A DNA stretch of 28,179 nt from IMG/VR virus record IMGVR_UViG_3300023179_000409, positions 1 to 28,179 of that record; one strand, written 5' to 3'. This DNA comes from a virus. A model generated the notes under the pieces. That model was not told where the DNA came from, did not search any database, and worked only from the letters and a program-made list of their open reading frames with translations. The translations under genes were made by a program, and so were the position numbers. Of this stretch, positions 1,514-28,067 are shown in pieces (the first letter of the stretch is position 1; the number at the start of each line of letters is the position of its first letter).

Positions 1514-4500
1514 TTAATCCATTGTATTAGAACTAGCAGAATCGCTATTCACTATAGCTGCACAATTATCGGGCCTAGTGTTTCCACCTGTAGCGTAGAT
1601 AATTTCTGTATCATCAGCCTTACAAAAACTGGTACGCCCGCCACGCCAGGGTGCATCCGAAACACCGTATGGTGGACCACCAGCGCTACCTCTATCTGTT
1701 GGTTGTTGGCCCCCTCGACCACCTGCACCCACTTTAACTTTATATTGTGTACCTGCACCTACTGGATATTTAGTGAGTAATCCAGCACCACCACCACCAC
1801 CTCCGGCATTAACACAAGGGCCGGTAGCACCCCCACCGCCGCCAGCTATTATACCCACTGTTATTTCTGTTACTCCAGTAGGTACAGTAAATGTACCAAT
1901 TAATGCATGTTCATATAAATCAGCACTAGCACGTTTAGCAGTGCTTAGACTGTGATCCCACTCTATAGCGTTGCTTCCAGACACCAAGCGAGAAGCACCA
2001 AATGCAGTCACATCAGCACTTGTGAATTGATAAGTTCCACCTGTAATAGTTATTCGTACCAGACCACCAGTACCATTACCGCCATTAATCGGTGCAGTCG
2101 AGCTGTTAGCTCCATCAGTCTCAACACCACCACCACCGTTACCTATTCCAGAAGCATGAACAGCAGCTGAATTGTATCCGGATAAACCGCCAGTTCCAGC
2201 AACACCAGAAGTTGTATAGCCGCCACCAGAGGCACCAGTACCATGGTCCCCTTCACCACCAACTGGCGAAATCCATGATCCACCTGCACCGCCCAACGGA
2301 CTTGCCGATCCGCCACCGCCGTTACCCATATGACTTAAAGCAGCTGAATAGCCACCTCTATGGCCAACAAACACACCAGGATATGCTAAAGGACCGAATC
2401 CATTACCGCCCCAGGCTGCATTAGAAGCAGGAATGCCCGGAGGTAGTGGTGGGGGTGGTGGGGGTGGTGGTACAGTTGTTGTACTAGAAGTTGAAGTAGA
2501 TGTTGTGGTAGTAGGTGGTGGTGGATATCTATCCTTAGTTGCATAGTATAATTGAGTAACCTCAAGACTAGATAGCTCTCTATTATAAACAAATACTTCG
2601 CTTATATCACCATCAAATTCATAACTATCAGAGGAACCAGGATTAGTTTGGTTAGCAAATGTAATACCAATACCAGCAGTGCCTGACGTAGCTGGCAAGT
2701 GTACCTGAGAAAGAGTTCTCTCCATTCCGTTAATATATAACTTATTGTATCCTACATAAGTGCTTCCACCGATTGTGTTATGAAATACAGCAGAAACAAA
2801 CACCCAAGCACCCTTATATTGTGACATAAACGAGGGGGTAACTCCATAAAGATCACCCGATCCATTGTTAAATCCTAATGCTCCTCCTGGCATCCATAAT
2901 CTATAACCAGTTTGCCATTCCATAGGGAATCCATTAGCATCACCTATGGAACTCCATCTCATCCACATGTTAACGGTATTGTATCCTCCAGGATTTGTAT
3001 TAATACCGGTTACATTAGATATAGAACTGGTACGATCGTTTATATTAGCACCAAAGTTAAACCTGAAATGCCCGCTTTGCTCCGGACGCCATTCAGGACT
3101 GTTATCCAATAAAGCGAAATCATTCTTATTTGTAGTTAAATCAAACCAAGTTTTACCTTTGGTCATATTATTTGTTACTCTAAAGAAAACTTGTTTCTGT
3201 TCTCCAGTTAGTAAGTCAAAAGTAGTGGGGTAAAAAGAAACTGATGATTCATTAGGTTTACTCAATACAGATATGGTAATATTAGTATTTGAAGTTTGAA
3301 GACCTCCAAAAGTTCCTACAGCGAATGAATCACTTGTCTCTGTTTGGGCCTGAGTAAACGGCACATAAATCGAAGATTCTGTATTGCCTATAATACCAAT
3401 CGATAAAGGTGCAGGAGCTATAGTTGTAGTAGTTGTTGATGTTGTCACTGAGCCGGGATCTAATTCTGCTACCCTAATAGAAAGACTATCATATATTGCC
3501 CCAGGTAATAGTTCTTCGGGACTATGAGCAAATAACCTATCAACAAACTTGCCGCCGCCAACTTTAATGTTACCCGCTGTTAATCCCGATGATGAACCAA
3601 AAGTATCACCTACTAAAATTGTATCATTTGTTTGAGAAACGTTACCTACAATTACCGGATTAACCGAACTTATTCCAGGAATAAGTTGATATAGAATTTT
3701 AGGTACAATATTGTCATCTGTCTGTACATAAAATCCCATTGTTCTATCATTGGCATTGTCAAAACTAGACGACATTACTTTTGTAAGATTGTTACTTGAA
3801 AAGATCGACCCGGTTACAAAATTTTCTGTGGTTTTATATGCTTGACCTTGATAACTTAAATAAGCTCCTTTTAAAACAACAGTATTCGGTTGCCACTCAG
3901 ATACTTGTGTTGTATATTGCACACGATCAAACTTTAAAGTGGTATGAATCTTTCTTACGGTTTTGTTACCTAATCTAGCAGTTAATACTGCACTACCTGC
4001 AAACTTAGAACCAGGCAATGATGATGTAAAAATTTTTGTTCCCTGCCATCTTGACCCATTATATACATAGGTTTTGTCTCCGTATGAATATGAAGTTCCA
4101 TTAAATGGATTTGTTGGCAACTGAAATGGAGTACTCAACACATAATGTTTAGGATCAGATCTAAGAGGAAATAAGTAACCATTTTCAATTCTAAATGATA
4201 TCGTACAAAAAGCATCTTGCGAATTATCTGAAGATCCGGCATAATGTTCTATACCACGACCAGTTCCGCAGCCTGGTAATCCAACCAAAATATAACTACT
4301 TCTGTACTTAAAATTACTATTAGCGAGACCAGGTTTTCCAAAAATTTCAACACTGGCTCCACACCTTTGTAGAGCTGCATCTAAATTATTTGTTAGTCTA
4401 TTGATTGAAGGTTCATCGTAAGTATGAACTACAACTACGTGATCATCAGTCGTCATATTTAAGTCTAAAGCTAGATCAGTTGTAGTATATCCTGTATAGC

Positions 4501-7500
4501 CTATAGAATTCTGTGAATAAATGTCGTAATGTCTAGAGAACGAAACGTACCCATCTGATCTTCTAATTCTATGCATGTGGAATCCACGTACCTGTGCTTT
4601 ATATTTTACATCAGAATATGGCCCGTAATCTAATAAATCTTTAATTGACGGTTCGGTTCCGTTTACTTCCTCAAATCTCGGGTAAGCGAACTGCCCTCTT
4701 GTGTAAGGGTCTGCACAATAATAATGATAACAACGTTGCATTGCCTGCGTTGCACCGGGAGGAAACTTACCATCAGCAATATTTCCATTGTTGGCCATCA
4801 CACGACCACTAGTGCGTGTATAAATTCCGCTATCAGGATGAGAACTAGTACCTGTGTGCGTGGAAGGAAAAATATACCCTACATGTAAATACCACACATC
4901 TTTATCATAATTGCCAGCACTTCTATAATTCCAATAAGGATTAGATTCATTTAAACCAGTGGCAATATTAATTACATCGTTGGAGCTACCAATAGTATGT
5001 AACCCATGATAGAATACGCCACCAGCATCATTTGTGGTACGACGCATCCAGACTACGCTTCTATATGTTTTACTTGGATCTATAGAAAAATAATTACCAT
5101 TCCAACCACCATCAGCATTACCGTCGCCGCTTGGCCTAGTTTCCCATACAATATTAAGTTGATTCCAGGGATCAAGGTCTCGTACTCTTTCATTTTCCTT
5201 AGTAAGGCCATTTCGGGGGAATGTTGCAGTTCCGCCCGATCCCAAAGTCCAATCTGCTGTGGATATTTTACTATGACTATAATTCTTTAATAGATTTTGT
5301 CTACTAAAGTCACCATATAACCCAAAGGTTAATTTGTTTATTGTGGCTGTGCGAGAGTAAGAATATCCTTCAGCCACTACTGTAAAATTAAATTTATTAC
5401 TATCATTTGGGCGACGACTTCCAACACCTAAAACTTTTACGATTGGAGTTTGTGTGTAATTTTCTCCGGTTTTATCCATGTAAACTTTGCTGATTCCAAA
5501 GTTAGTAGTATCGATTATGACGGAGGCATTAGCTTCCTCTCCAGAAGAATAATCAGTTCGTAATATTTCAATATTGGGAATTATGACATTGCCATTTTGA
5601 AAATTTTGGTAACCGTAACCTGGTCTTGATACGACTAATTGGTCAATAGAATACTTATAGTTGCTGAGCCAATTTATATATTCGGGTCTTTGTAGAATTA
5701 CTGCATCTATTTCTGGGCGGCTACCGTCGGGACTTCTGTATACCTCTAAATCGCGATCATAATAAGGCTGTATGTCAAAATCAGTTATATTACCAACATA
5801 AGAATCTATTTTTTCATATGCTGATATAAATTCTCTAATTTTTGTCCTATATGGTTTTATCTCATTAACATAATTTTCTATGTTAGTTTGATAATTGCTT
5901 ATTGTACTAGCTAACTCTGTGAAATTTTTAGTTATGTGTTTAATAGAGATAAAACTTGTCTTAAAGAACCAATCAATATATTTTTGCTCACCTAAAATAT
6001 AATTTATAAGATTAAATAATAATTTTGTATATTCAATTTTAAGATCATCTATAAATACTTCTTCTTTTAACCCTTGGAACACATAACGAAGTTCAATATC
6101 TTTTCGATTGTCATAAACATTTACATCAAAATCAAAACTATCAAATCCTTCTAATTGAGCCACTGAATCAGATATTTGTATAGATTTATTTGCGAGTCCG
6201 ATTAGTCTCGGCTGGAACTTGCCATTTGCCATGCTATCAAATTGGTATAGTTCCCAATCACCTAGAGACTCTTCGTAATCATTAACAATATTACCATACC
6301 TTATAGTGGTATTAGAATTATTATTAACCTTAACAATTAATCCATCAGTCAAATCTAATTTATAAACATCTTTAAATTCGTTAACTATATTATCGGGTCG
6401 TGTTTGGCTGGTATAACCGGGAGCGTACCAATCTATATAATACCATATGTTTTGAACATTAAAACTTTGTTTTTTAATTAAACTTAAAACAGTGTTTTCG
6501 GCTGTAGGAAATACTCCCACAGTACCTTTTCTTTGATATAAACCCCAACCATTTAAAGTTTCATCATTTTTTACTAAGATTTTTAACGTTTCTAAAGTCT
6601 GTGCCGGATTATAAATTTGACTCTTTGTTTCTACAATTACGTTATAGCTTGTACTACTAGGCTCAGGGTCACTGGCAAAAAAATTGTCAGAAAAAATTGT
6701 AGATTTATTTCTTAGTTTAGAAACAACTGGATATTGAATTAAAATATCATTTATATACTTTATAAGATTTTTTCTAGCATTTTGCTTATCTATTATTAAA
6801 GTTTGGTTTGGTGCCACACCTAAACCAATTTTTTTCTGAGCAGAGAGAAATGGATCTGGAACTAAACTACCATTTACATCTAATCCAATTACGCTATCAA
6901 TTAACTTATTTTCTAAAGCTATTGGGAAGGCAAAATTGGGATTACCATCTTGTAACAATGTAAAATCACTGTGAATAATTTGATCGGTTACTAATTTTTT
7001 ACTTGACAGATATAAAGTCGTCTCATCTTGAAACAAAAATGGTCCTGCATTATATAAAGCTATGGCGTCATCACGTAAAGCAGCCATGAAAGGTATGCCT
7101 TGGGATATTGGATCTAAAATAATAGATTCAATCGAAATAGTCGTTTTCTTTTTATTAGCAGCAGATTTGTTAGTTTTTCCTCTAACCCAGAAATAATATT
7201 TGGTTTTAAAACTACCAGTTTCTTTGTCAACATAAACCGAATCAGAATAATATTCGTCATTTGCATACAAAGGAGTACCTTCTAATCCATTTGTAACATA
7301 GACAGAAGGAAGATAATCACTATCTATCCATTCGTACACTTCAACAGTGCTACCTGGAAACAATTTACCCCAGTTTTCTACTCTAGAACGTAATTCACCT
7401 TGTTCGTAGTCCACAAATCTACAGTTAGAAGTATTCCACCAATAGGTCCCGACTTGGTCTTGACCCCAGAAAATTTCTTCGCTGAAATAATAATTACTAC

Positions 7501-10500
7501 TTGTATCATTTCTTCTGTAAGCAGCGGGATCACGACTAGCTATTATATCAATTTCTTCTCTAGCTGTACTAAGGATTCTGCCCTTATTTGGATCATATAG
7601 ATCCACTCTAGTTAGTATTTGTTTATTTTTATTATTATATAGATAGATATTGTTGATACTTTCAATATCAACAATTTTGTTAAATTGTCTTACTACCTCA
7701 AATTTATAGACATATATTTCTTTTACCGAAGTTACAGTTTGAGTTCTAATTAATTCACCGCCTATACTTACATCCCTAGCAATATCTTCATCAGTAGCAT
7801 CTTCAATGGTATAATACAATTCTTCAGATTCATCAGCTGAAAAAACACAAAAATTAATAGCGTCACTATAATCAACTGACTGAACAATTGAATTAGCTAT
7901 CTCACAATTAATTCCAACGATATTATATATGTTTGTTATGTCAGTACTACTGTCAACAGAAATTTTAGATTCTACATCAGAAAAAATTGCTTTATATACT
8001 GCCCAAGAGTAAGGGTAGGTAACTTCATTAACATAAATTAAATCAGATTCAAGAAATCCATATTTAGGTACGTGAGAGTAAAGCTCGGTTAAGTTTGAAT
8101 ATCTTAATTTTTCAAAATCTATCAATTCTGCTTGGCGATTATCGACTGCAAAATTGTTTTCTATCCCAGATTTAATTACACAAATCTCTGTTTCGGTTAC
8201 AGTAAAAATTGGATAGAAACCATCAACCATTGTGTCTACACCACGAACTGCTATCATGTCTCCTATTTGACATTCATGTGCAGAGTCGCAAACTAATATT
8301 AATTTATTATCAAGATCAGATCTTGCAGCTATGATCTTAACTGGTGATATGTAGGCCCTATAAACCTGCCAGTTATTGTTAAAATCTTTAGCCACCCATA
8401 TTTTGTACCCGTTATATAAGTTTAATAACAAAGTACTGTCAAAAGTTGCATAATTTCTTATATCAAAAACTTGACTATTAATTTCATCAATATTAACGAA
8501 TCCGGCACTTTGAATGTCATCCTCATAGAGTTTATATTTTCCACGAATTTGGTCTTCAATTATACTCTTAACAAGTGGTGATAGAATTTGGTCATTTATT
8601 AATCTATACCCTTCTTGGTTAGGATGAATGCCATCTAACGAAAGATAATTTTTTAATTCTGTTAAGTTATAGACATCAGCTAAGTAATCTCCGTATTCAT
8701 TAGAAACTTCCCTCATTGCTTTAGCATACAATGATAAATCATTAGTTCCAATTGGAGCAAATTGCGTATATTGACTTTCAACATCTATTTTAACTGGCGT
8801 TTGCCAAATTACAATTTTATCCTTTGGTAATCTTTCCCTTAAAGCAATTAAATTAGATTTGTAGATAGATATAGGTACACCATATCTAGCGTCGTTCAAA
8901 CCATGGTTTATTACTACTATATGAGATTCTATGTTATCAGGCCAAACTCCATTAACACCATCATTGCCTGTTAATAAATCCTGACTTTTAGAATTTTCAA
9001 CAGACCGTGTTGTTACAGCTACATCAAAAACATTTTCTAAACTTTTGAATAGTAAGAAATCGGGTGGTTCATCTACACGACCTGTTACTTTATCTTTAAG
9101 ACAAACTAGATCCGAATTAATATCTCCGATACCTTCTGTTGCAGTGTCTTGAATTTCATTAATAGCTACTTCTTCTATAGACCAATAGACATCCTCAGTA
9201 TCAAAAATTGATGTTATATTTAAAAAAACATCATCGCCCATTTTAGTTTCATCTACATAATAATATGTACCGTCTTGGGTTCTCGCACGAGGTCTATCCG
9301 GATATAATGCAGGCTCAATACTAATATGTACTTTTTGAAATGCGTTTTTAGTTGTAAACTCAATACTCAAATCCGATGGAGAAAGCAAACTTACAATAGA
9401 AGGTTGAAGAGCATCGTCGTATGTAGTGGTGGAAAGTTGAATTTCATCCGCGGTTGGGGTTTCTAGCGTTACAAATAATTTTTCATTTGGCGTCATAGAA
9501 GTGAAATTTAATAAAAAAGGTTCACCTGCACGAACATAATCTTGATATCGTTGGTTGTGAACTCCGGTAATATGAATTGAATATGATGATTTTTGCGTTA
9601 GATCAATCGAATAACCATGTCTTTTAGCAATACGCACGCTATATCGATCCGCTTCAACTTTTTTGCCACAAATAACACTATCACCAAACAACTCAACTTT
9701 CCATAATTGTGGTTCAATAACATTTCTATTTCTAAAAATATTTGGCGAGTATTCAGAAGGATATAAGAGAAAATCTCTAAATTTTACAGGAACAATTAAT
9801 TTGTTTTCAACCTCTTGGTTCGAATCAAGCATCTGATACGCAATTGGGTTATCTGTATACAAACTATTTTTAATAGGAAAACTATATTCTGGATTATTAT
9901 CTATCGCCCCGTAAACACCAAGTCTTGCTCCCCATTCCTCGTAAAGTTCTATTGTATTTTCTACATTGGAAAATATGCCTCTTTCAAATGCACGAATGGC
10001 ATTTGCAGTACCTTTTTCTTTAATAAATCCTTGATAAAATTTTATTTGTGAAACAGGATCTAACCCCAGATTGTTCAGATAGTCTCTTGTTCTATACCCA
10101 ATTAAACTGTTACTGTATATTGTTAAATTTTCGTCATAAGGCAATAGGTCAACGTCATATATATCTGAGAACTTTACAGCATTCTGACTTAAATTCGGAA
10201 GTAGACCTTCCCTAAAACTGGAATCTAATCTTATCCAATAATTAAAATTAAAAGAATCTGATCCTTCAATATCTTTTAGGGCACTGTAATACAAAGATTT
10301 ATATTGAACAATTTCGCCTTTCTTGTAATCATAACTTGACTGCCATTCATCTACTTTGCCATCAGAATATACGAACCCCGGAGGTGTTAATTCACCATCC
10401 CATGAATTTGTTACTGACCCTACTATTTTTAGTCTAGTTTGTCTATCACCAACTTCGGGTTTATACAAAATATCGTTAAAGATACTAATATTATCTAGCA

Positions 10501-13500
10501 ATAGTACATGTTCGTATTGAATTAGGTTAAGTCTCAATAAAGCTATGGTTTGCCCACTTACTGTAGTTATAGTTGTACGTTTACTATCGCGTAATATGCT
10601 GAAATCATTATTTCGAATAATATTATAATTTGTACCTAAAATTTGCGACCCATAAACATAATTGTCTATTTGGTCAACAACATAATTTTCAGAATATACA
10701 TGTATAGTATCAATTATAGGACTTAAGACAAGAATGTTTCCAGAATCCCACCCTTGTTTAGCCCATGTAATGAATTCTTGTACGCTTAAACTAAAATTCC
10801 TAACAGATTGTAATTCGGTGTCATAGGTGTCAAAAATAATACCTTGTGCCGACAGGTACCTTTGATAACTGATTAAAAAATCAGCTACCTGTTGCAAAGA
10901 CACAAATTCAAAACCATAAGGAATTTTAAGTTTTTGTGGTAAAAATTTATCAAACAATACTATAGTTTCATCTAGAACATTAATAGAATAACTTGTACCA
11001 TTTACTTGGCTAGGAATTATTGTAAAATAAGGAAACTTTTGATCATAACCATTTACACTGAATCCCCTAGAAGTTCTTTCAATTACAACAGCACTATAAG
11101 AAATTGTCTCAACAGGTAAACTTTTGTGCAAATATATATTATAACTTTCTTCGGGTATAATCAAACTTTGACTTTTACTTGTAAGACTGATTTGATTGGC
11201 TAAAACATTAATATAATTTTTATTAGTGAATCCGGCAAATTTATATGCTAAATTTAAATTAGAATTATCAATAACATTTCTTAAAGTTGTAGAAGCATCT
11301 ATACCAAGTCCCACTAGATACCCGTGAATCCAATTTATGTAACTTGATGCCCTTTGAACCTTATTGCCAATAGTTTCACCATTTACTATTATATTTTTGA
11401 AACTTAACCTTAGATTTGTATCTTTAACAGAGTATTGTCTTGTCTGTGCATCAAATCTATAATTAAATGTGTCTAATAACAGACCAAAATATTGTGCCGG
11501 TTTTAATAATGCAAAGGCTTTTTGTTCTGCAAATACATATTCACTGCTTCTAGCCCATGCCGATTCAACAGGGCCATAGTCACCAACTGTAAAATTCCCG
11601 GACAACCTTTCGCTATCGAAGCCTGATATTAAGATTTGCTGCGGTGACAGTAAAGTACCTGTTTTATCAACAGGAATGACCTTTTCAAATCCAGGTCTAG
11701 CGTAAGAAGAATTAGTTGCTGTAAGATATGTACTAGCAGAGGGAATCTGTGTACGTCCATTTACAATAGCTGATATAAGGTTTGATCTTTTGGCACTTTC
11801 TTGCCAACTATAGTAGTTATCCCACCAGTTGGGTTTGATTGAATACCCTAACATCTCCCATGGATGAGTGTGTGGACGATCCGTGTCAAAAAAGTATTTG
11901 TAAATACCACGCCAGTACCCGGGAACACGTTGATTATCTAAATCTCGTGCTTCTCTGTAATTCCAAGACCATTCGTCATTGGCACTGAAAAAACTATTAG
12001 TTGTATAGTCTAAACTATTCTCACCTACCCATTTTAAAAATTCTAAACTTAAAACAGATGTGAATTCAGCTCTAGAATAACTAGTGGTCCTATACTTGCC
12101 AGGTATTACTCTACGTCTATTAAATAAACTTTCAGTAAATCTTACTTTAATATTATTAAAAATTCTAGTTTCTAATTCTAAAATAAGATAATCTCTTATG
12201 TCATTAAAAGCCGGTAATAAGCTACCATCATGCCCTTGAATTACGTAAAAAGGTTTGGAATATGTTTCATCTAAAAATTTTTCAGGTACATAACTAGGAT
12301 ACATACCTAACTTGCTAGGTGTTTCCGGAATATAATTTCCATCTGTGTTAGTATATTCCTTAATTGTGAGAACATCACCTTCTTTTAGATTAACTGTGTT
12401 TGATAAATTTAATAAATTGTTAGTTATTGTAAAATCTATATTGCGTTTTAGAATTTTATTATTAATATATACTAAAATTGCAATATTACTAGGTTCATCT
12501 TTAAATGTTAAATTCAAATTATAGATTAATTGAATATTGCTTGTTACCCTTCTATTTGTAATAGTAACGCCGCGACGACCGAACGGAACCATATCCGAAT
12601 AATAGAAAGGAAAATTTTCATTTTTAACTTCGGAAAATTTTTCTAGAATTTCATCTAAAATAGCAGGTACTTCGTTTATATTTCTATCCAAATAATTGTT
12701 TATTGCATCTAGAAATCTATTTTTAAATCTTGTATATTCTTTAGCAGCATAATCAATGGCATGAACATAGTTTGTTTGTTTATTGGTTAAAAATGCTATA
12801 GCCGGTGCGAGACTAGCACTATGTTGTAAAATAGTTCCAGGAATACCTTTATAACTAATGTCTCGTAAGTTATTTGATTGAAAAATGTTTCCAATAAGAA
12901 ATCTGCTATTCTCACCAATTTTCTTAAGATTGTTTCGCAATTGTCCAAAAGTAATACTACTGATTAATTCGTTAAAGGGATTATTTTCTAAATTACCTGG
13001 GATTTCGTAATATCCAAACGAAGAAGGCTGAGGTGCATATAAAAAAATGTCAATAATATCATCTTTGACAAGAAGTCTATAATCAATAACTACTGCTGTC
13101 CTCTCACCAACCAATTCTACTCTATATTCTGGGTTTACTGAATTGGTTAATTGTAAAAATTCACCGTTTAAAAATATTTTTAAATTCGATGTTATTCCTA
13201 AGGGTGCAGTAGGAATTTTTCCTATTTCAAAATAATTAGTGATAGCATCATATTTGCTTCTTATATGTTGATATTGTTTAGATTCATTATCAACCGCAGT
13301 AAAATTATTAGTAAGTAAAAAGGAATAACGACCAGTAATTTTTCTAAGATAACCAATGTTAATTGATTTTTCTACTCTGTTTGTAAGTGCTTGATTAAGC
13401 CGGTATGCGAAGGTGTCATTATCAAAGTTATTTTCAAACTCAATATCACCAGAAAGGTTTAAATTGTTAGAGTAGGTTAGAGAAAAAGGCAATACATCAT

Positions 13501-15883
13501 CCACTGCACCATTGCCTAGTTTGTAACTAAACACTTTTGTCCCAGTAAAACTACTGTCTGTATATAGGTCTGCTAAACTGCTTCCGTTATTATTAACCAC
13601 ATCAAACAACGGTGGTAAATTAATACTTGTTTTGGTTTGTCCTTGCTGCCAATCATCTTTATTAAAATAAAAACTTTTACCAACATTTTCACCATTTTGT
13701 ACCACCACTACATCATAATTAGTAATCGAGTCTATTTCTGCAAGAACTACTCTAGGTTGGTTATATTTTACACCAATTAAATTGGTATATGTTACATTTA
13801 CTGGCATTTCCAAATATGCTTCGGATATTCCTCTTATTTCTGCTATTCGACCTATATATGAATTATTTGACTCATATAAATCAGTACCAATCTCTAATTG
13901 TGTTATAAAATTTGTATTAACACCACTTACTCTATTTTTAGAAATAGTAACAGTACCAGATAATTGACCATCAAATACTACTGAAGATATTTGATCTAAC
14001 CGATTAATTTTGTATATCTTATTTTTTACTAACGAAGAACTATCATTACCAAAAACAACAGTTTGCCCAACTTGTAATGAAAAACCCACTGTTTTAAGGT
14101 CAGCGAATTTGATATTTGGTAATACAGCAAATGCGTTATTAAACTTTTCTAACTGACCACGGTTTATATACTTGAAATTTTTGTCAAAGAAATAATTTAT
14201 AAATCCTTTCAAAACTCTACCAGAATTAAATAACTGCAAATCGGCATCAAATTCAATAATAGGCCTTTGTGCATTTTGCAGACCGCCGAGATCTAATTGA
14301 TAATTATTTCTTTTATAAGATTCAATAATTACATCTTTGTGAAACCAACGATTTATTCTAGCCCATGCGTTACTGTCTAAGCTAGATCTATTCATTACAA
14401 TATAGTCAGGAACTTGTGACCCTTGAAAAACTTCGTCATATTTGCCAACATCAAATTGTTTTATCTCATAAGCAGATTCAACAAGATTTTCAGTTACTTC
14501 CGGTACAATTAATAATTCTAAATCTACAAATCTAATCGCTTTTCCTACACCTTCAACAATGAAAGTTTTGTTATGGTACTGGCTTGGGATAACAGTATCA
14601 TCAAACTTAATCTTCATACCATTTGATAACGTTAGTCCATCGGGGGTCGTGTACGTGCTACGGCCAATAATATCGTTTACATTAATTGTAGTGTAGGCTT
14701 TGTCAATTATTTCAATTTCGCCAAAATAATCTTTCTTACTGTGTTGATAAAAAAGAAAATTAGTTTCGGCTGTGACACCTTTAAATTCTGCAAAAGAACT
14801 GCTAGGAATATAATATTCTTTACCTTGTTTGAATCCTTTGTTTATTAAAACTCGAACATTTTGCGGAACACTACGAACATAATTTAATTGTACCCTTGCT
14901 GGTTGCCCAGAGTATTTTACTATATCTATACGCCATATACCGCTACGACGTTCTATGGGAACAATTTGTCCATTTCTATCAGTCCAATCACTGTTCGATG
15001 TACTTGTGCTTAGGAAGATGACTTCGGTATTATCGGGGTAAAACTGTTCGCCATCTAATTGATTGCTCATACCTTCACCAAAATTCCAAATTACATTGTC
15101 AAGTAAAGAAAAGTTAGTTGTTAAAGCATATTCAACATGATCAATTTGTGGATATCTAAGTAAGGCATCTTGCGTTGATTCAAGAGGTGGTGTAAACGTT
15201 ATTGTTGATGATCCATTATTACTAACCCCAGCAACTTCTCGACTAGAGACACTAGGACTATATTTTTTTGTTCCATCTTTGCCAGGTTCAGTTTGAATGA
15301 ATAAATTACCCTGTAACGAGCTTACATTAAACGTATAGGTAACTCCTCTTTGCAGAACAATCTTTGGATTGTTTTGAGTACCAGCAACATCTATGTTAAA
15401 GGCATAACTTTGATCAATGAAATTATAAGTAGTACCAGGATATACTTTTTTAGTGCCTATGACTATCTCTTCTGGACCAGCCGGTAACCAGTAATAATTT
15501 CTGTAATTAATTAACTTATCAAAATCAACAGGAGGTGTATACGCATAAGATATATTATTAAATAATCTATCATGATTAGACGTAATGCCACCAAAATATG
15601 AAATTTGGTTTATTAAATCGTTATAATTTGCAAAACTTTCAACCTTAGAAAACTTATTTTTTAATACCAATCCAACTTCGAGTTGATAATTTTGTCTTAA
15701 TTTGCTTATTTCGCTGACATAACTATCATCTTTATATCCAAAATTTCTTCCAATATATCCATTCACTCTCTTAAAGTTAGGTTCGCTGACAAGTTGGTCT
15801 AAGGTGCTGCCTAGAAATTTCTTGTTAGCATCAGTTTGGAATATTCCAGGTAATAGTTTAATAGTTTTTCTACTGAGAGCCAT
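1514..15883 (-). CDS. Giant multidomain baseplate/tail structural protein with embedded SGNH hydrolase and C-terminal adhesin modules
   Basis: This 4789-residue protein fills half the window. I start it at ATG 15883 (MALSRKTIKLLP); a TTG two codons upstream is less likely. The N-terminus (LPGIFQTDANKKFLGSTLDQ) resembles large virion proteins of T4-like cyanophages and pelagiphages in the gp7/gp8 position after gp6, recognised from memory. Regions in order: cupredoxin-like beta domain (~165-250); Ig-like module (~640-705); conserved Trp/His-rich stretch HTHPWEMLGYSIKPNWW (~1336-1352); CBM5/12-like WQSSYDYKKGEIVQY (~1840-1885); SGNH hydrolase (~2060-2440); carbohydrate-binding-like beta-sandwich (~3530-3760); ILEI-like domain (~3800-3915); second CBM5/12-like WQPNTVVLKGAYLSYQGQAY (~3990-4030); Thr-rich linker (~4145); Ig-like module; LamG-like domain (~4255-4450); Ser/Thr/poly-Pro linker (~4453-4483); glycine-rich tip to the end. 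It probably forms peripheral baseplate and receptor-contact structures. Assignment to gp7, gp8 or gp10 is uncertain. The frame is intact throughout. Confidence 0.8.
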   Translation of the reverse strand: MALSRKTIKLLPGIFQTDANKKFLGSTLDQLVSEPNFKRVNGYIGRNFGYKDDSYVSEISKLRQNYQLEVGLVLKNKFSKVESFANYNDLINQISYFGGITSNHDRLFNNISYAYTPPVDFDKLINYRNYYWLPAGPEEIVIGTKKVYPGTTYNFIDQSYAFNIDVAGTQNNPKIVLQRGVTYTFNVSSLQGNLFIQTEPGKDGTKKYSPSVSSREVAGVSNNGSSTITFTPPLESTQDALLRYPQIDHVEYALTTNFSLLDNVIWNFGEGMSNQLDGEQFYPDNTEVIFLSTSTSNSDWTDRNGQIVPIERRSGIWRIDIVKYSGQPARVQLNYVRSVPQNVRVLINKGFKQGKEYYIPSSSFAEFKGVTAETNFLFYQHSKKDYFGEIEIIDKAYTTINVNDIIGRSTYTTPDGLTLSNGMKIKFDDTVIPSQYHNKTFIVEGVGKAIRFVDLELLIVPEVTENLVESAYEIKQFDVGKYDEVFQGSQVPDYIVMNRSSLDSNAWARINRWFHKDVIIESYKRNNYQLDLGGLQNAQRPIIEFDADLQLFNSGRVLKGFINYFFDKNFKYINRGQLEKFNNAFAVLPNIKFADLKTVGFSLQVGQTVVFGNDSSSLVKNKIYKINRLDQISSVVFDGQLSGTVTISKNRVSGVNTNFITQLEIGTDLYESNNSYIGRIAEIRGISEAYLEMPVNVTYTNLIGVKYNQPRVVLAEIDSITNYDVVVVQNGENVGKSFYFNKDDWQQGQTKTSINLPPLFDVVNNNGSSLADLYTDSSFTGTKVFSYKLGNGAVDDVLPFSLTYSNNLNLSGDIEFENNFDNDTFAYRLNQALTNRVEKSINIGYLRKITGRYSFLLTNNFTAVDNESKQYQHIRSKYDAITNYFEIGKIPTAPLGITSNLKIFLNGEFLQLTNSVNPEYRVELVGERTAVVIDYRLLVKDDIIDIFLYAPQPSSFGYYEIPGNLENNPFNELISSITFGQLRNNLKKIGENSRFLIGNIFQSNNLRDISYKGIPGTILQHSASLAPAIAFLTNKQTNYVHAIDYAAKEYTRFKNRFLDAINNYLDRNINEVPAILDEILEKFSEVKNENFPFYYSDMVPFGRRGVTITNRRVTSNIQLIYNLNLTFKDEPSNIAILVYINNKILKRNIDFTITNNLLNLSNTVNLKEGDVLTIKEYTNTDGNYIPETPSKLGMYPSYVPEKFLDETYSKPFYVIQGHDGSLLPAFNDIRDYLILELETRIFNNIKVRFTESLFNRRRVIPGKYRTTSYSRAEFTSVLSLEFLKWVGENSLDYTTNSFFSANDEWSWNYREARDLDNQRVPGYWRGIYKYFFDTDRPHTHPWEMLGYSIKPNWWDNYYSWQESAKRSNLISAIVNGRTQIPSASTYLTATNSSYARPGFEKVIPVDKTGTLLSPQQILISGFDSERLSGNFTVGDYGPVESAWARSSEYVFAEQKAFALLKPAQYFGLLLDTFNYRFDAQTRQYSVKDTNLRLSFKNIIVNGETIGNKVQRASSYINWIHGYLVGLGIDASTTLRNVIDNSNLNLAYKFAGFTNKNYINVLANQISLTSKSQSLIIPEESYNIYLHKSLPVETISYSAVVIERTSRGFSVNGYDQKFPYFTIIPSQVNGTSYSINVLDETIVLFDKFLPQKLKIPYGFEFVSLQQVADFLISYQRYLSAQGIIFDTYDTELQSVRNFSLSVQEFITWAKQGWDSGNILVLSPIIDTIHVYSENYVVDQIDNYVYGSQILGTNYNIIRNNDFSILRDSKRTTITTVSGQTIALLRLNLIQYEHVLLLDNISIFNDILYKPEVGDRQTRLKIVGSVTNSWDGELTPPGFVYSDGKVDEWQSSYDYKKGEIVQYKSLYYSALKDIEGSDSFNFNYWIRLDSSFREGLLPNLSQNAVKFSDIYDVDLLPYDENLTIYSNSLIGYRTRDYLNNLGLDPVSQIKFYQGFIKEKGTANAIRAFERGIFSNVENTIELYEEWGARLGVYGAIDNNPEYSFPIKNSLYTDNPIAYQMLDSNQEVENKLIVPVKFRDFLLYPSEYSPNIFRNRNVIEPQLWKVELFGDSVICGKKVEADRYSVRIAKRHGYSIDLTQKSSYSIHITGVHNQRYQDYVRAGEPFLLNFTSMTPNEKLFVTLETPTADEIQLSTTTYDDALQPSIVSLLSPSDLSIEFTTKNAFQKVHISIEPALYPDRPRARTQDGTYYYVDETKMGDDVFLNITSIFDTEDVYWSIEEVAINEIQDTATEGIGDINSDLVCLKDKVTGRVDEPPDFLLFKSLENVFDVAVTTRSVENSKSQDLLTGNDGVNGVWPDNIESHIVVINHGLNDARYGVPISIYKSNLIALRERLPKDKIVIWQTPVKIDVESQYTQFAPIGTNDLSLYAKAMREVSNEYGDYLADVYNLTELKNYLSLDGIHPNQEGYRLINDQILSPLVKSIIEDQIRGKYKLYEDDIQSAGFVNIDEINSQVFDIRNYATFDSTLLLNLYNGYKIWVAKDFNNNWQVYRAYISPVKIIAARSDLDNKLILVCDSAHECQIGDMIAVRGVDTMVDGFYPIFTVTETEICVIKSGIENNFAVDNRQAELIDFEKLRYSNLTELYSHVPKYGFLESDLIYVNEVTYPYSWAVYKAIFSDVESKISVDSSTDITNIYNIVGINCEIANSIVQSVDYSDAINFCVFSADESEELYYTIEDATDEDIARDVSIGGELIRTQTVTSVKEIYVYKFEVVRQFNKIVDIESINNIYLYNNKNKQILTRVDLYDPNKGRILSTAREEIDIIASRDPAAYRRNDTSSNYYFSEEIFWGQDQVGTYWWNTSNCRFVDYEQGELRSRVENWGKLFPGSTVEVYEWIDSDYLPSVYVTNGLEGTPLYANDEYYSDSVYVDKETGSFKTKYYFWVRGKTNKSAANKKKTTISIESIILDPISQGIPFMAALRDDAIALYNAGPFLFQDETTLYLSSKKLVTDQIIHSDFTLLQDGNPNFAFPIALENKLIDSVIGLDVNGSLVPDPFLSAQKKIGLGVAPNQTLIIDKQNARKNLIKYINDILIQYPVVSKLRNKSTIFSDNFFASDPEPSSTSYNVIVETKSQIYNPAQTLETLKILVKNDETLNGWGLYQRKGTVGVFPTAENTVLSLIKKQSFNVQNIWYYIDWYAPGYTSQTRPDNIVNEFKDVYKLDLTDGLIVKVNNNSNTTIRYGNIVNDYEESLGDWELYQFDSMANGKFQPRLIGLANKSIQISDSVAQLEGFDSFDFDVNVYDNRKDIELRYVFQGLKEEVFIDDLKIEYTKLLFNLINYILGEQKYIDWFFKTSFISIKHITKNFTELASTISNYQTNIENYVNEIKPYRTKIREFISAYEKIDSYVGNITDFDIQPYYDRDLEVYRSPDGSRPEIDAVILQRPEYINWLSNYKYSIDQLVVSRPGYGYQNFQNGNVIIPNIEILRTDYSSGEEANASVIIDTTNFGISKVYMDKTGENYTQTPIVKVLGVGSRRPNDSNKFNFTVVAEGYSYSRTATINKLTFGLYGDFSRQNLLKNYSHSKISTADWTLGSGGTATFPRNGLTKENERVRDLDPWNQLNIVWETRPSGDGNADGGWNGNYFSIDPSKTYRSVVWMRRTTNDAGGVFYHGLHTIGSSNDVINIATGLNESNPYWNYRSAGNYDKDVWYLHVGYIFPSTHTGTSSHPDSGIYTRTSGRVMANNGNIADGKFPPGATQAMQRCYHYYCADPYTRGQFAYPRFEEVNGTEPSIKDLLDYGPYSDVKYKAQVRGFHMHRIRRSDGYVSFSRHYDIYSQNSIGYTGYTTTDLALDLNMTTDDHVVVVHTYDEPSINRLTNNLDAALQRCGASVEIFGKPGLANSNFKYRSSYILVGLPGCGTGRGIEHYAGSSDNSQDAFCTISFRIENGYLFPLRSDPKHYVLSTPFQLPTNPFNGTSYSYGDKTYVYNGSRWQGTKIFTSSLPGSKFAGSAVLTARLGNKTVRKIHTTLKFDRVQYTTQVSEWQPNTVVLKGAYLSYQGQAYKTTENFVTGSIFSSNNLTKVMSSSFDNANDRTMGFYVQTDDNIVPKILYQLIPGISSVNPVIVGNVSQTNDTILVGDTFGSSSGLTAGNIKVGGGKFVDRLFAHSPEELLPGAIYDSLSIRVAELDPGSVTTSTTTTTIAPAPLSIGIIGNTESSIYVPFTQAQTETSDSFAVGTFGGLQTSNTNITISVLSKPNESSVSFYPTTFDLLTGEQKQVFFRVTNNMTKGKTWFDLTTNKNDFALLDNSPEWRPEQSGHFRFNFGANINDRTSSISNVTGINTNPGGYNTVNMWMRWSSIGDANGFPMEWQTGYRLWMPGGALGFNNGSGDLYGVTPSFMSQYKGAWVFVSAVFHNTIGGSTYVGYNKLYINGMERTLSQVHLPATSGTAGIGITFANQTNPGSSDSYEFDGDISEVFVYNRELSSLEVTQLYYATKDRYPPPPTTTTSTSTSSTTTVPPPPPPPPLPPGIPASNAAWGGNGFGPLAYPGVFVGHRGGYSAALSHMGNGGGGSASPLGGAGGSWISPVGGEGDHGTGASGGGYTTSGVAGTGGLSGYNSAAVHASGIGNGGGGVETDGANSSTAPINGGNGTGGLVRITITGGTYQFTSADVTAFGASRLVSGSNAIEWDHSLSTAKRASADLYEHALIGTFTVPTGVTEITVGIIAGGGGGATGPCVNAGGGGGGAGLLTKYPVGAGTQYKVKVGAGGRGGQQPTDRGSAGGPPYGVSDAPWRGGRTSFCKADDTEIIYATGGNTRPDNCAAIVNSDSASSNTMD
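1517..2436 (-). other. Polyglycine-rich adhesin tip of the giant protein
   Basis: The last ~305 residues hold many Gly runs (GNGGGGSASPLGG, IGNGGGGVETDG, IAGGGGGATG, AGGGGGGAG) and the phage-fibre phrase FTVPTGVTEITVGIIAGGGG. Such runs resemble stacked polyglycine-II helices as in gp38-type receptor-binding adhesins of T-even phages. The loops between Gly runs would be the variable receptor contacts. It follows a LamG-like domain and a Thr/Pro linker, fitting a modular exchangeable tip. Confidence 0.55.
2437..2525 (-). repeat. Low-complexity Ser/Thr and poly-Pro linker coding repeat
   Basis: On the plus strand this is a GGT/GGG-rich run followed by GTT/GAA/GTA triplets. On the coding strand it reads as four Pro, a Ser/Thr run (TTTTSTSTSSTTT), then Val and eight Pro. 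Similar Ser/Thr linkers are encoded near 3409-3450 in the same gene and near 741-790 in the next gene. They look like flexible hinges between binding modules and could serve as sites of domain exchange. Confidence 0.7.
4180..5300 (-). other. Carbohydrate-binding-like beta-sandwich and ILEI-like domain of the giant protein
   Basis: Residues ~3530-3760 carry a pattern seen in many phage fibres: a 'LLKNYSHSKISTADWTLGSG' opening, 'DGGWNGNYFSIDPSKTYR' and 'VVWMRR', suggesting a galactose-binding-like sandwich. Residues ~3800-3915 match the ILEI (FAM3-like) domain: VVVVHTYDEPSINRL, then RCGAS, then YRSSYILVGLPGCG, then a Gly-Glu-His-Tyr-Ala-Gly motif. ILEI domains occur in phage tail proteins and are thought to bind ligand or glycan. 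Both calls rest on remembered motifs, with no search. Confidence 0.55.
8550..9710 (-). other. SGNH/GDSL hydrolase domain inside the giant structural protein
   Basis: Block I is LFGDSVICG with the nucleophile at Ser2069. Block III is INHGLND with Gly2328 and Asn2330. Block V is LDGIHPN with Asp2417 and His2420, followed by the usual 'xxGYxLINDxI' helix. These are the signature residues of SGNH esterases/deacetylases. Block II is poorly conserved: TTRSVENSKSQDLLTG (about residue 2290) lacks the expected Gly. About 200 beta-rich residues (~2080-2280) lie between block I and block II, which are usually close together, so another domain seems inserted in the fold. SGNH domains on phage tails are known to deacetylate host surface polysaccharide, for example gp63.1 of phage G7C. 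Removal of acyl groups from a host glycan is the inferred role here; the substrate is unknown. Confidence 0.75.
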
Positions 15884-15893
15884 CTTCAATCCA

Positions 15894-25912: not shown

Positions 25913-26214
25913 TATCCACCTAATGCAGACATTAAGGTATTAGCATCGGGAATGAATATTTTTTGTCCTAAATAAAAATCAAAAATAGGATCACGTATAG
26001 TATTTGGATTCCTTGCAGCAAATACCCACCAAAGTTGAGGATTATTATAGACATCGTTGGCTAACAAGTCAGGACGATATTCATAAACTCGATTGATTTT
26101 AAATAATACATCCTGACTACTACGTGGTATAGATCTATAATTTAAAATGTCGAGAAAACGCCCAAATCTCTCTGTGGTAAAATATGGACTGTACTTGGTA
26201 TATTCTGCTGCCAT
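25912..26214 (-). CDS. 53: Baseplate wedge protein gp53-like
   Basis: The 100-residue product matches the C-terminal/LysM-like half of T4-type gp53, the wedge clamp that binds gp6 and gp25. Visible features are KYSPYFTTERFGRFLDILNY near the N-terminus, YEYRPDLLANDVYNNPQLWW in the middle, and LGQKIFIP near the C-terminus, the last being LysM-like. T4 gp53 has 196 residues, so this is a short form as in marine relatives. Start and stop overlap both neighbours by one base (TAATG), so it is tightly coupled to gp48 and the hub gene. Confidence 0.83.
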   Translation of the reverse strand: MAAEYTKYSPYFTTERFGRFLDILNYRSIPRSSQDVLFKINRVYEYRPDLLANDVYNNPQLWWVFAARNPNTIRDPIFDFYLGQKIFIPDANTLMSALGG

Positions 26215-27107
26215 TATAAAAACTTGCTCCCAACTAATTTGCCCTGGGCAAACTCATTTAAATCGAATTGTGTTAATGATTCTTTACTATAGACTGGTTG
26301 TAGCGAAATACTAAATGTGCTCATAACCGGAATTCTCGTGCAGCCCTCACCGGAACTAGACAAAAAATTAGTTAACCCACCTAACCTAGGTTCTTCACCA
26401 AACTCACCGGCTCCGGTGCTAGGTTGAAAGCCTATTCCAGTGCTACTACCACTAGTCACTATGTAATCTACTTCACTGGGCATGGTGTGACTAAAACTTG
26501 TAACAATACAAGGAACGTCAGGGAAATAATGTCGTCCATACCCACTTAAAAAAACTAATGGTGGCGGATAGCCCGCAAACTCTCCTCTCCCAAAAAACAT
26601 TTTTGAAGTAGCCCTAAAGAAATAAATACAAGCTAGAACATAATCAGCTTCTTCCTTATTTTGTGCTGTGAATTCAGCTTGAATCTGAATTGTTTGTACT
26701 TCAGAGTTGTCGTAACTATAATGAGCATAATTACTATGGGTGAATCTCTGAGGAGTATAATTTGCTTGATAAGCTACCGTAATATTTGGTGTGTAAGGAA
26801 ATATGACTCCACCACTTTCAATTAAAGGATTCAATAAACCGCTTATTCCACTTTTGTAAAGAATGTTGGCATTTCCTATTCTAATACGAACTTTCCAATC
26901 TGATGAACTACTACCTTGGCTATCATTGAAGTTGATATTAAAATTTCTGCCTGTGGATTTACCCATGCCGATTATTCCTAACAGACCTGATGACTGTAGA
27001 CGACCCACCACCGGATCTACAATAGGTGCAATAGCTTTACCTAACATCCTAGTTCCTACAAGTGCAGGAGCTGCTATAGTACTGACAATGTTTTGGAAAT
27101 CAAACAT
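26214..27107 (-). CDS. 48: Baseplate tail-tube cap protein gp48-like
   Basis: I start this gene at ATG 27107 (MFDFQNIVSTIAAPALVG), giving 297 residues. A longer frame extends to 27317, but that part lies opposite gp55 and encodes improbable sequence. Features resembling cyanophage gp48 are DWKVRIRIGNANILY, GGVIFPYTPNITVAYQANYT, THSNYAHYSY, PPPLVFLSGYGRHYFPDVP and a C-terminal FAQGKLVGSKFL. gp48 caps the baseplate hub and starts tail-tube polymerisation. It is the first gene of the minus-strand operon and follows a perfect late-promoter octamer by 20 nt. gp54 is the main alternative, but the motifs and position favour gp48. Confidence 0.72.
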   Translation of the reverse strand: MFDFQNIVSTIAAPALVGTRMLGKAIAPIVDPVVGRLQSSGLLGIIGMGKSTGRNFNINFNDSQGSSSSDWKVRIRIGNANILYKSGISGLLNPLIESGGVIFPYTPNITVAYQANYTPQRFTHSNYAHYSYDNSEVQTIQIQAEFTAQNKEEADYVLACIYFFRATSKMFFGRGEFAGYPPPLVFLSGYGRHYFPDVPCIVTSFSHTMPSEVDYIVTSGSSTGIGFQPSTGAGEFGEEPRLGGLTNFLSSSGEGCTRIPVMSTFSISLQPVYSKESLTQFDLNEFAQGKLVGSKFL

Positions 27108-27203
27108 AGAATCACTCGCTTTATTATTATTTATAATTACAAAAAATGGTTGTATTTGTGCCCAAATTATGTTACTATTTTTATAGTATTGAGGAGAATT
27201 AAA
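27108..27203. other. Divergent promoter region between late structural operon and gp55
   Basis: This AT-rich segment of 96 bp is the only noncoding stretch of note. On minus it holds TATAAATA for gp48. On plus it must hold or transmit the promoter for gp55. The best -10-like hexamer there is TATAGT at 27182-27187, with TTGTGC at 27156-27161 as a poor -35 at 20-bp spacing. That promoter would start transcription inside the gp55 ribosome-binding site, so I do not trust it. Confidence 0.6.
27128..27135 (-). promoter_or_regulatory. Late promoter TATAAATA upstream of gp48
   Basis: This is an exact match on the minus strand to the T4 late consensus octamer read by gp55-programmed RNA polymerase. 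Its 3' end lies 21 nt from the gp48 ATG, so transcription would begin ~15 nt before the start codon. It heads a run of structural genes, and the sigma factor gene is directly divergent. Confidence 0.7.
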
Positions 27204-27206
27204 ATT
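27191..27206 (+). promoter_or_regulatory. Strong ribosome-binding site and probable AUU start of gp55
   Basis: GAGGAG at 27191-27196 is the best Shine-Dalgarno sequence in the window. Seven nucleotides later comes ATT in the gp55 frame. No ATG or GTG start exists in frame until 27489, which would remove the conserved N-terminus. The next in-frame alternative, TTG at 27237, has no ribosome-binding site. Confidence 0.6.
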
Positions 27207-28067
27207 AAAAGTAACTATCTCAACAACAAAGATATATTGAAAGAAATACATAAAAGTAAAAATACATATTGTAGCTATATTACCTCCGATGTAGCCGACT
27301 ATGATATTATTATTCATGATCTAAAAAGTATTACTGCCGATCTTATTGAACAAGCTAGACAAAATCGTGCCGAAAGGCTAGCAAAACTTGCATGGGAAGC
27401 CAGTCAACAACAAGGGGAAAAACGCAAATTAGATGAATTCTCTATACCTTTATCTCAGATAAAAAAACAAGATATAGTACTACGTGTAATGACTTGGGAA
27501 CATATACCAGTTGCACCCGTAGTTTCAAAAAAAGTTTTATTGGTAGATATAGAAGACGAACCTGTTGTAACCGAATATGATGATGAACCGGCTACCGGCC
27601 CAATAAAATATGTCAAATGTAACTTTCCGCCATTCCAACATTATAAAATCGGGCTAAGAAATAAACCATACTGCGTAGGTAAAAGTCACTGGCAGGGAGA
27701 TTTAGAGACCGGTACTTATTCTAAAGATCACGGTACAATGACACGTACTCTAGCCCATATGTTTATGAAACTATGCGAACGCTATGCTACCCGTAGTAAT
27801 TGGCGTGGATATACTTACAATGATGAAATGCGTAGCCAAGCTCTATTACAGCTTAGTCAAATTGGACTACAGTTCGATGAAAGTAAGAGTCAAAACCCGT
27901 TTGCCTACTACACTGCTGCTATAACTAATAGTTTCACCCGTGTGCTCAATATCGAAAAACGTAACCAAAACCTACGAGATGACATATTAGAAATGAACAA
28001 CTTTGCTCCCAGTTATACTAGACAAGGCATGCTGTCAGGTGGGCATATTGCGGACGATCATGACTAG
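27204..28067 (+). CDS. 55: Late-transcription RNA polymerase sigma factor, gp55-like
   Basis: With the AUU start the product has 287 residues; T4 gp55 has 185. The N-terminal NYLNNKDILKEIHKSK resembles the YVNNKD segment of cyanophage gp55, supporting this start. A charged helical stretch follows (about 45-80). The C-terminal ~110 residues are the sigma-2-like core: ATRSNWRGYTYNDEM, then GLQFDESKSQNPFAYYTAA, then FTRVLNIEKRNQNLRDD. gp55 directs host polymerase to TATAAATA late promoters and works with the sliding clamp and gp33. The middle region (~105-185) is extra relative to T4 and includes Cys139, His146, Cys157 and His162, a possible metal site. The hydrophobic clamp-binding tail of T4 gp55 is not obvious; this protein ends in IADDHD. 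It is followed by gp47 33 bp downstream. Confidence 0.87.
   Translation: MKSNYLNNKDILKEIHKSKNTYCSYITSDVADYDIIIHDLKSITADLIEQARQNRAERLAKLAWEASQQQGEKRKLDEFSIPLSQIKKQDIVLRVMTWEHIPVAPVVSKKVLLVDIEDEPVVTEYDDEPATGPIKYVKCNFPPFQHYKIGLRNKPYCVGKSHWQGDLETGTYSKDHGTMTRTLAHMFMKLCERYATRSNWRGYTYNDEMRSQALLQLSQIGLQFDESKSQNPFAYYTAAITNSFTRVLNIEKRNQNLRDDILEMNNFAPSYTRQGMLSGGHIADDHD

What the first reader, a model, noticed from the sequence alone, without database searches (positions are those of the whole stretch)
27191..27215. AUU start codon for the late sigma factor
GAGGAG is followed at ideal spacing by ATT, the frame lacks ATG or GTG near the expected N-terminus, and the residues after ATT resemble the start of cyanophage gp55. 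AUU starts are rare (infC is the classic case) and are sensitive to IF3, so this could throttle sigma synthesis and delay late transcription.
Basis: partly seen in the sequence, partly recalled or inferred. Interest (0 to 1): 0.6.

Follow-up and report, generated by a model that had tools for sequence, protein, structure and literature searches.

The report
AUU-start phage late sigma gene
A phage gene for the switch protein that turns on late genes begins with a rare, inefficient AUU start codon paired with an unusually strong ribosome-binding site, and dozens of related phages do the same, so the odd start is real and probably limits how much of the switch protein is made.

Summary
GAGGAG (27191-27196) lies 7 nt before ATT (27204-27206), which opens a 287-codon frame encoding a gp55-type late sigma factor (PHROG E=1.5e-81; T4 gp55 structure 7d7c E=2.6e-9). 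The first in-frame ATG is residue 96. It is not a sequencing error: IMG/VR scans gave 76 distinct loci (window included) with ATT (67) or ATC (9), never ATA, at exactly this codon, where other relatives have ATG, GTG or TTG. ATT persists between relatives whose four-fold sites are only 23-67% identical. Non-NTG starts go with a strong SD (GGAG/GAGG in 74/76; 6/68 for ATG and 2/35 for GTG/TTG at the same codon), also over independent phylogenetic pairs (14:3, Wilcoxon p=0.0008). In four large ATT-gp55 phage contigs gp55 is the best or second-best non-NTG start among 146-402 genes. A sigma70-type promoter predicts a ~19-nt leader. Best reading: an infC/pcnB/sigR-like translation-limiting start, discriminated against by host IF3 and offset by a strong SD, that sets late-sigma dosage. 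IF3 control and delayed late transcription are inferred, not shown. New variant of a known kind; no earlier phage case turned up in the literature searched.

The parts
27204..28067 (+). gp55-type late sigma factor gene, 287 codons, starting at ATT
   Evidence: phrog_12791 E=1.5e-81; phrog_234 E=1.7e-23; T4 gp55 chain 7d7c_F, E=2.6e-9
27204..27206 (+). ATT (AUU) start codon
   Evidence: aligned with ATG/GTG/TTG/ATT/ATC starts of relatives
27191..27196 (+). strong Shine-Dalgarno GAGGAG, 7 nt from the start; duplex energy -9.3 kcal/mol against a genome-wide median of about -4 to -5.6 in related phages
27150..27178 (+). predicted sigma70-type promoter: -35 TTGTAT (27150-27155), 17-nt spacer, extended -10 TGTTACTAT (27170-27178); predicted TSS about 27185, leader about 19 nt
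   Evidence: the same promoter shape in 57 of 76 ATH relatives
27128..27135 (-). T4-type late promoter TATAAATA, divergent, in front of the virion structural gene (ATG at 27107)
26214..27107 (-). divergent virion structural gene (phrog_12050), a likely gp55 target
27189..27191 (+). in-frame TTG, rival start, considered and rejected
   Evidence: no SD; not shared beyond L134

Best explanation
The late sigma factor (gp55) gene is translated from the AUU codon at 27204, by formyl-Met initiator tRNA mispaired at the third codon base. A strong SD seven nucleotides upstream holds the 30S subunit in place and compensates for the weak codon. SHOWN by sequence: the start position, its recurrence, retention of ATT/ATC, exclusion of ATA, coupling to a strong SD, near-uniqueness of gp55 in the genomes checked, and a promoter-like sequence giving a very short leader. 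INFERRED: host IF3 discriminates against this codon, as for infC, pcnB and sigR, so that gp55 output per mRNA is held low even though the promoter looks like a host sigma70 promoter. That sets the dose of late sigma and could tie the late switch to the IF3/ribosome balance of the infected cell.
For: ATT/ATC at the homologous codon in 76 distinct loci. 30 of these have an in-frame stop within 10 codons upstream with no NTG between, and 25 of those also have no NTG in the first 20 codons, leaving no conventional start. Codons from +1 on are conserved as protein with synonymous variation, whereas upstream of the start only the SD and AAA are conserved. Four-fold sites between the window and ATT relatives are 23-67% identical while ATT is kept. 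SD: -8.25 kcal/mol for ATH against -5.33 (ATG) and -5.71 (GTG/TTG); 14:3 over independent pairs, Wilcoxon p=0.0008; L147 (ATT, AGGAG) against L330 (GTG, AGGAA) is a natural near-minimal pair. Gene-specificity. Published parallels: AUU/AUA starts give about 10% of AUG output and come with extended SDs (PMC13009471); sigR GTC start repressed by IF3, with SD AGGAGGTG (PMC5472188).
Against: No ribosome profiling or N-terminal peptide. Many relatives use ATG, GTG or TTG, so ATT is not essential to the family. The ATT+strong SD / NTG+weak SD trade-off could be drift between TIRs of equal output, without any IF3 signalling. Twenty of the 76 loci have an in-frame NTG somewhere upstream. Host unknown; IF3 dependence untested.
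Confidence: 0.78

Rival explanations
1. Iso-expression drift: the phage only needs a certain moderate gp55 level, and lineages wander among TIRs of equal strength (ATT + strong SD, GTG or ATG + weak SD). AUU is a real start, but its IF3 sensitivity is not used.
For: 19 changes between ATH and NTG on the tree, 8 forced by well-supported branches; SD strength moves in compensation.
Against: ATH starts are nearly absent from other genes of the same genomes, about 1 in 146-402, so drift alone does not explain why gp55 does this so often; ATT is kept over long distances.
Confidence: 0.35
2. The gene starts at the in-frame TTG 27189, or at another upstream NTG, making an N-terminally extended protein; ATT is an ordinary Ile codon.
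For: TTG 27189 is in frame in the window and in L134.
Against: The TTG overlaps the SD and has none of its own; the predicted TSS is about 4 nt upstream of it; most ATH relatives lack it, and in L017 the frame is closed two codons before ATT; upstream codons are not conserved as protein.
Confidence: 0.05
3. Translation starts downstream, at TTG 27237 or later.
For: TTG 27237 is in frame.
Against: It is TTA in the 93%-identical relative L134, has no SD, and would cut off the near-invariant NYLNNKD motif.
Confidence: 0.02
4. Sequencing or assembly error of an ATG.
For: Single metagenome contig; raw reads not available here.
Against: L134, 87% identical in the CDS and from another contig, has the same ATT; 74 further distinct loci carry ATT or ATC.
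Confidence: 0.01

Closest known systems
infC (IF3 gene) AUU start, E. coli
   Same: GGAGG-type SD about 7-8 nt before ATT, AAA as second codon (L269: ttGGAGGaataaggtATTAAA); non-NTG start of a regulator gene
   Different: Encodes IF3 itself, hence autoregulation; gp55 is a phage sigma factor, and 21 related phage contigs carry no IF3_C domain
Streptomyces sigR GTC start repressed by IF3 (PMC5472188)
   Same: Sigma factor gene with a non-canonical start and a very extensive SD, a normally annotated start being wrong; purpose there is sigma dosage
   Different: GTC rather than AUU/AUC; cellular stress sigma with an anti-sigma; conserved only in Streptomyces; IF3 effect shown by experiment there, not here
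E. coli pcnB AUU start; S. aureus cvfC1 (AUU), ccpN and infC (AUA) (PMC13009471)
   Same: Conserved non-canonical start with strong or extended SD that limits expression
   Different: Cellular genes, AUA tolerated there and absent here
T4 gp55 and gp55 of jumbo phages (PA5oct, Atu_ph07, Phosso, 121Q)
   Same: Protein family and likely role; TATAAATA late promoters present in the window
   Different: The eight named phages inspected start gp55 with ATG

Membership tests
T4-type late sigma factor (gp55) | Sequence homology to gp55 | tested here: met
   phrog_12791 E=1.5e-81, phrog_234 E=1.7e-23; profile hits T4 gp55 7d7c_F at E=2.6e-9 over positions 145-235
T4-type late sigma factor (gp55) | TATAAATA-type late promoters before structural genes | tested here: met
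   Minus strand 27135 and 21129, just before the structural genes at 27107 and 21114; only two clear cases in this window
T4-type late sigma factor (gp55) | Directs RNA polymerase to late promoters | not testable with these tools
   Needs in vitro transcription
Non-canonical (AUU-class) translation start | Non-NTG codon at the conserved start position, with no usable NTG | tested here: met
Non-canonical (AUU-class) translation start | Strong SD compensating for the weak codon | tested here: met
Non-canonical (AUU-class) translation start | Initiation observed at the codon (profiling, peptide) | not testable with these tools
   No expression data for this uncultivated phage
IF3-regulated gene (infC, sigR type) | Expression changes with IF3 level or IF3 fidelity alleles | not testable with these tools
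   Needs reporters in infC mutants
IF3-regulated gene (infC, sigR type) | Codon of the class that IF3 discriminates against (AUU, AUC, AUA) | tested here: met
   ATT 67, ATC 9, ATA 0

The most novel reading that the evidence does not exclude
A large group of uncultivated jumbo phages has put its master late-gene switch under the host's IF3 proofreading: gp55 mRNA is made from a host-type promoter, but its AUU/AUC start with a strong SD makes output depend on the IF3/ribosome balance, so that the early-to-late switch senses the translational state of the cell. The same start-site design reached a second phage gene (phrog_16202) in some lineages.
Probability: 0.25. Interest if true: 0.85.

Novelty: new variant of a known kind. 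Interest (0 to 1): 0.62.

Why it matters
Conserved AUU starts are known from only a handful of bacterial genes. Here is one that has recurred many times in the gene for the key late regulator of a phage group, with natural ATT/NTG pairs that make the role of start codon and SD directly testable. Gene finders that allow only ATG/GTG/TTG will call this start wrongly or miss it. If IF3 control is real, it links phage developmental timing to the host's initiation machinery.

Tried and rejected
Phage-encoded IF3 as partner: no IF3_C (PF00707) match in 21 related contigs. Phage-encoded initiator tRNA as the enabling factor: an initiator-like tRNA-Met is present in G001 (gp55 ATT), but also in G009 (gp55 GTG), and ARAGORN called no tRNA-Met at all in G002 (gp55 ATT), so no consistent link. 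Non-NTG starts as a general habit of these phages: only gp55 and one other credible gene in four ATT genomes; sham codons give as many weak candidates. Host clue through bacterial genomes: the only genome contigs match was a chance hit in a Lutibacter gene. TIR hairpins: weak and alike in ATH and NTG groups. One search failed on a script bug, on wrong coordinates, on a too-short term, one search was an incomplete submission. Tool-run independent pairs on starred branches alone were too few for significance (about 4.4 same direction, 0 opposite of 8); the greedy pairing over all branches gave 14:3, which leans on unsupported branches too.

Full report
Observation. The window is a 28,179-bp uncultivated virus record. 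On the + strand GAGGAG lies at 27191-27196 and is followed by two in-frame ATT codons, 27198 (1 nt away) and 27204 (7 nt away). The frame from 27204 runs to a stop at 28067 and encodes 287 residues. The first in-frame ATG is at 27489. The product is a gp55-type late sigma factor: phrog_12791 at 1.5e-81 and phrog_234 at 1.7e-23, and a family profile finds T4 gp55 (7d7c_F) at 2.6e-9. TATAAATA late-promoter sequences stand in front of two structural genes on the minus strand, at 27135 and 21129, which fits a T4-like late system.

Is ATT the start? Of the 80 closest IMG/VR relatives found by protein, eight others have ATT at exactly the homologous codon; the rest have ATG, GTG or TTG there or one to a few codons upstream. 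In L017 an in-frame stop lies two codons before ATT. After de-duplication 76 loci start with ATT (67) or ATC (9) and none with ATA, although ATA makes up 25% of the internal Ile codons of the same genes (chance about 4e-10). In 30 of the 76 an in-frame stop lies within 10 codons upstream with no NTG between, and 25 of these also lack any NTG in the first 20 codons. Conservation changes character at this codon: downstream the protein is conserved with synonymous variation; upstream only the SD and the AAA before the start are conserved. The nearest relative, L134, is 87% identical in the coding DNA, has the same ATT and an unbroken identical stretch through the promoter -10, SD and start, and has TTA where the window has TTG 27237. 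A sequencing error and the nearby TTGs are therefore poor explanations.

Is it kept by selection? Between the window and other ATT members, four-fold degenerate sites are 23-67% identical while ATT is unchanged. ATH and NTG starts interchange 19 times on the gp55 tree (8 forced by well-supported branches, shuffled mean 59.5), so the trait is both clustered and recurrent. Non-NTG starts go with a strong SD: mean duplex energy -8.25 kcal/mol against -5.33 for ATG and -5.71 for GTG/TTG at the same codon, GGAG/GAGG in 74/76, 6/68 and 2/35. The SD lies 7 nt away in 60 of 74. In 17 edge-disjoint ATH/NTG pairs closer than 1.0 on the tree the ATH member has the stronger SD in 14 (sign test p=0.013, Wilcoxon p=0.0008). 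L147 and L330, 0.05 apart, differ as TTAGGAGATGCAAA-ATT and TTAGGAAACACAC-GTG: a natural trade of codon strength for SD strength. The first set of GGAG-containing loci came from a pattern that demanded GGAG, but all 76 also match the unconstrained pattern, so the coupling is not built in by that search.

Is it peculiar to this gene? With a simple coding-plus-SD model on six large contigs, gp55 is the best non-NTG start in G001, G002 and G004 and the second in G003, among 146-402 genes each; two contigs with GTG or ATG gp55 (G009, G010) have no credible internal case. Sham codons show that most other candidates are noise. The other candidate in G003 encodes a 172-aa protein of phrog_16202 (unknown function). 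Its relatives mostly start with ATG, but six loci (L472-L475, L514, L541) have ATT behind GGGG or GGAG and AAA: the same design in a second gene.

Transcription. Upstream of gp55 is a sigma70-like promoter: TTGTAT, 17 nt, TGTTACTAT in the window (27150-27178); TTGACA and TGTTAGTAT in many relatives. The extended -10 is present at the right distance in 57/76 ATH and 78/103 NTG loci, against 2.3 and 6.1 expected in shuffles. The predicted leader is about 19 nt, with little beyond the SD. So gp55 is likely transcribed by unmodified host polymerase, and the start codon is where its output is held down. This is inferred from sequence.

Mechanism. From established work (own knowledge for infC; pcnB cited in PMC13009471), AUU pairs imperfectly with the initiator anticodon and IF3 destabilises such complexes. 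Reporter measurements in S. aureus give non-canonical starts about 10% of AUG output and note extended SDs at such sites (PMC13009471). Streptomyces sigR, also a sigma gene, has a GTC start with SD AGGAGGTG and is repressed by IF3; a canonical start or IF3 fidelity mutants cause overproduction (PMC5472188). E. coli infC has the same shape, ttGGAGGaataaggtATTAAA. The best-supported explanation is a dosage-limiting start; control by IF3 is likely but inferred; a delay of late transcription is possible but untested. No IF3 domain was found in 21 related contigs, although huge phages with IF3 exist (PMC7162821), so host IF3 would be the actor.

Limits. All evidence is comparative. The phages are uncultivated and their hosts unknown. 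The eight named phages inspected start gp55 with ATG. The literature searches covered open PubMed Central papers only, so the absence of an earlier phage example is not proof. The T4 post-transcriptional review holds no AUU case.

Noticed in passing
L472-L475, L514, L541 (start at locus position 1001 in most); G003:C1 about 177707: A second gene (phrog_16202, unknown function, 160-172 aa) uses an ATT start with the same GGGG/GGAG...AAA-ATT design in a few lineages; 72 of 80 relatives use ATG.
   Followed up: partly
L476-L551, about 5-15 nt before the ATG of the phrog_16202 gene: Most ATG-starting relatives of that gene have TAAATA (late-promoter-like) only a few bases before the ATG and no SD, which would give leaderless or nearly leaderless late mRNA.
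   Followed up: no
G001:C1 c[121650,121725]; G009:C1 c[316060,316134]: Phage-encoded tRNA-Met with initiator-like mismatch at 1:72 (A.A, C.A), among 40 and 21 tRNAs; could affect initiation at non-AUG codons, but present with both ATT and GTG gp55.
   Followed up: partly
window 27109-27203: Divergent intergenic region: TATAAATA late promoter on the minus strand and sigma70-like promoter on the plus strand within about 50 bp.
   Followed up: partly
window 1514-15889 (-): A single open frame of about 4,790 codons on the minus strand, a giant phage structural protein with Thr/Ser-rich repeats and a glycine-rich end.
   Followed up: no
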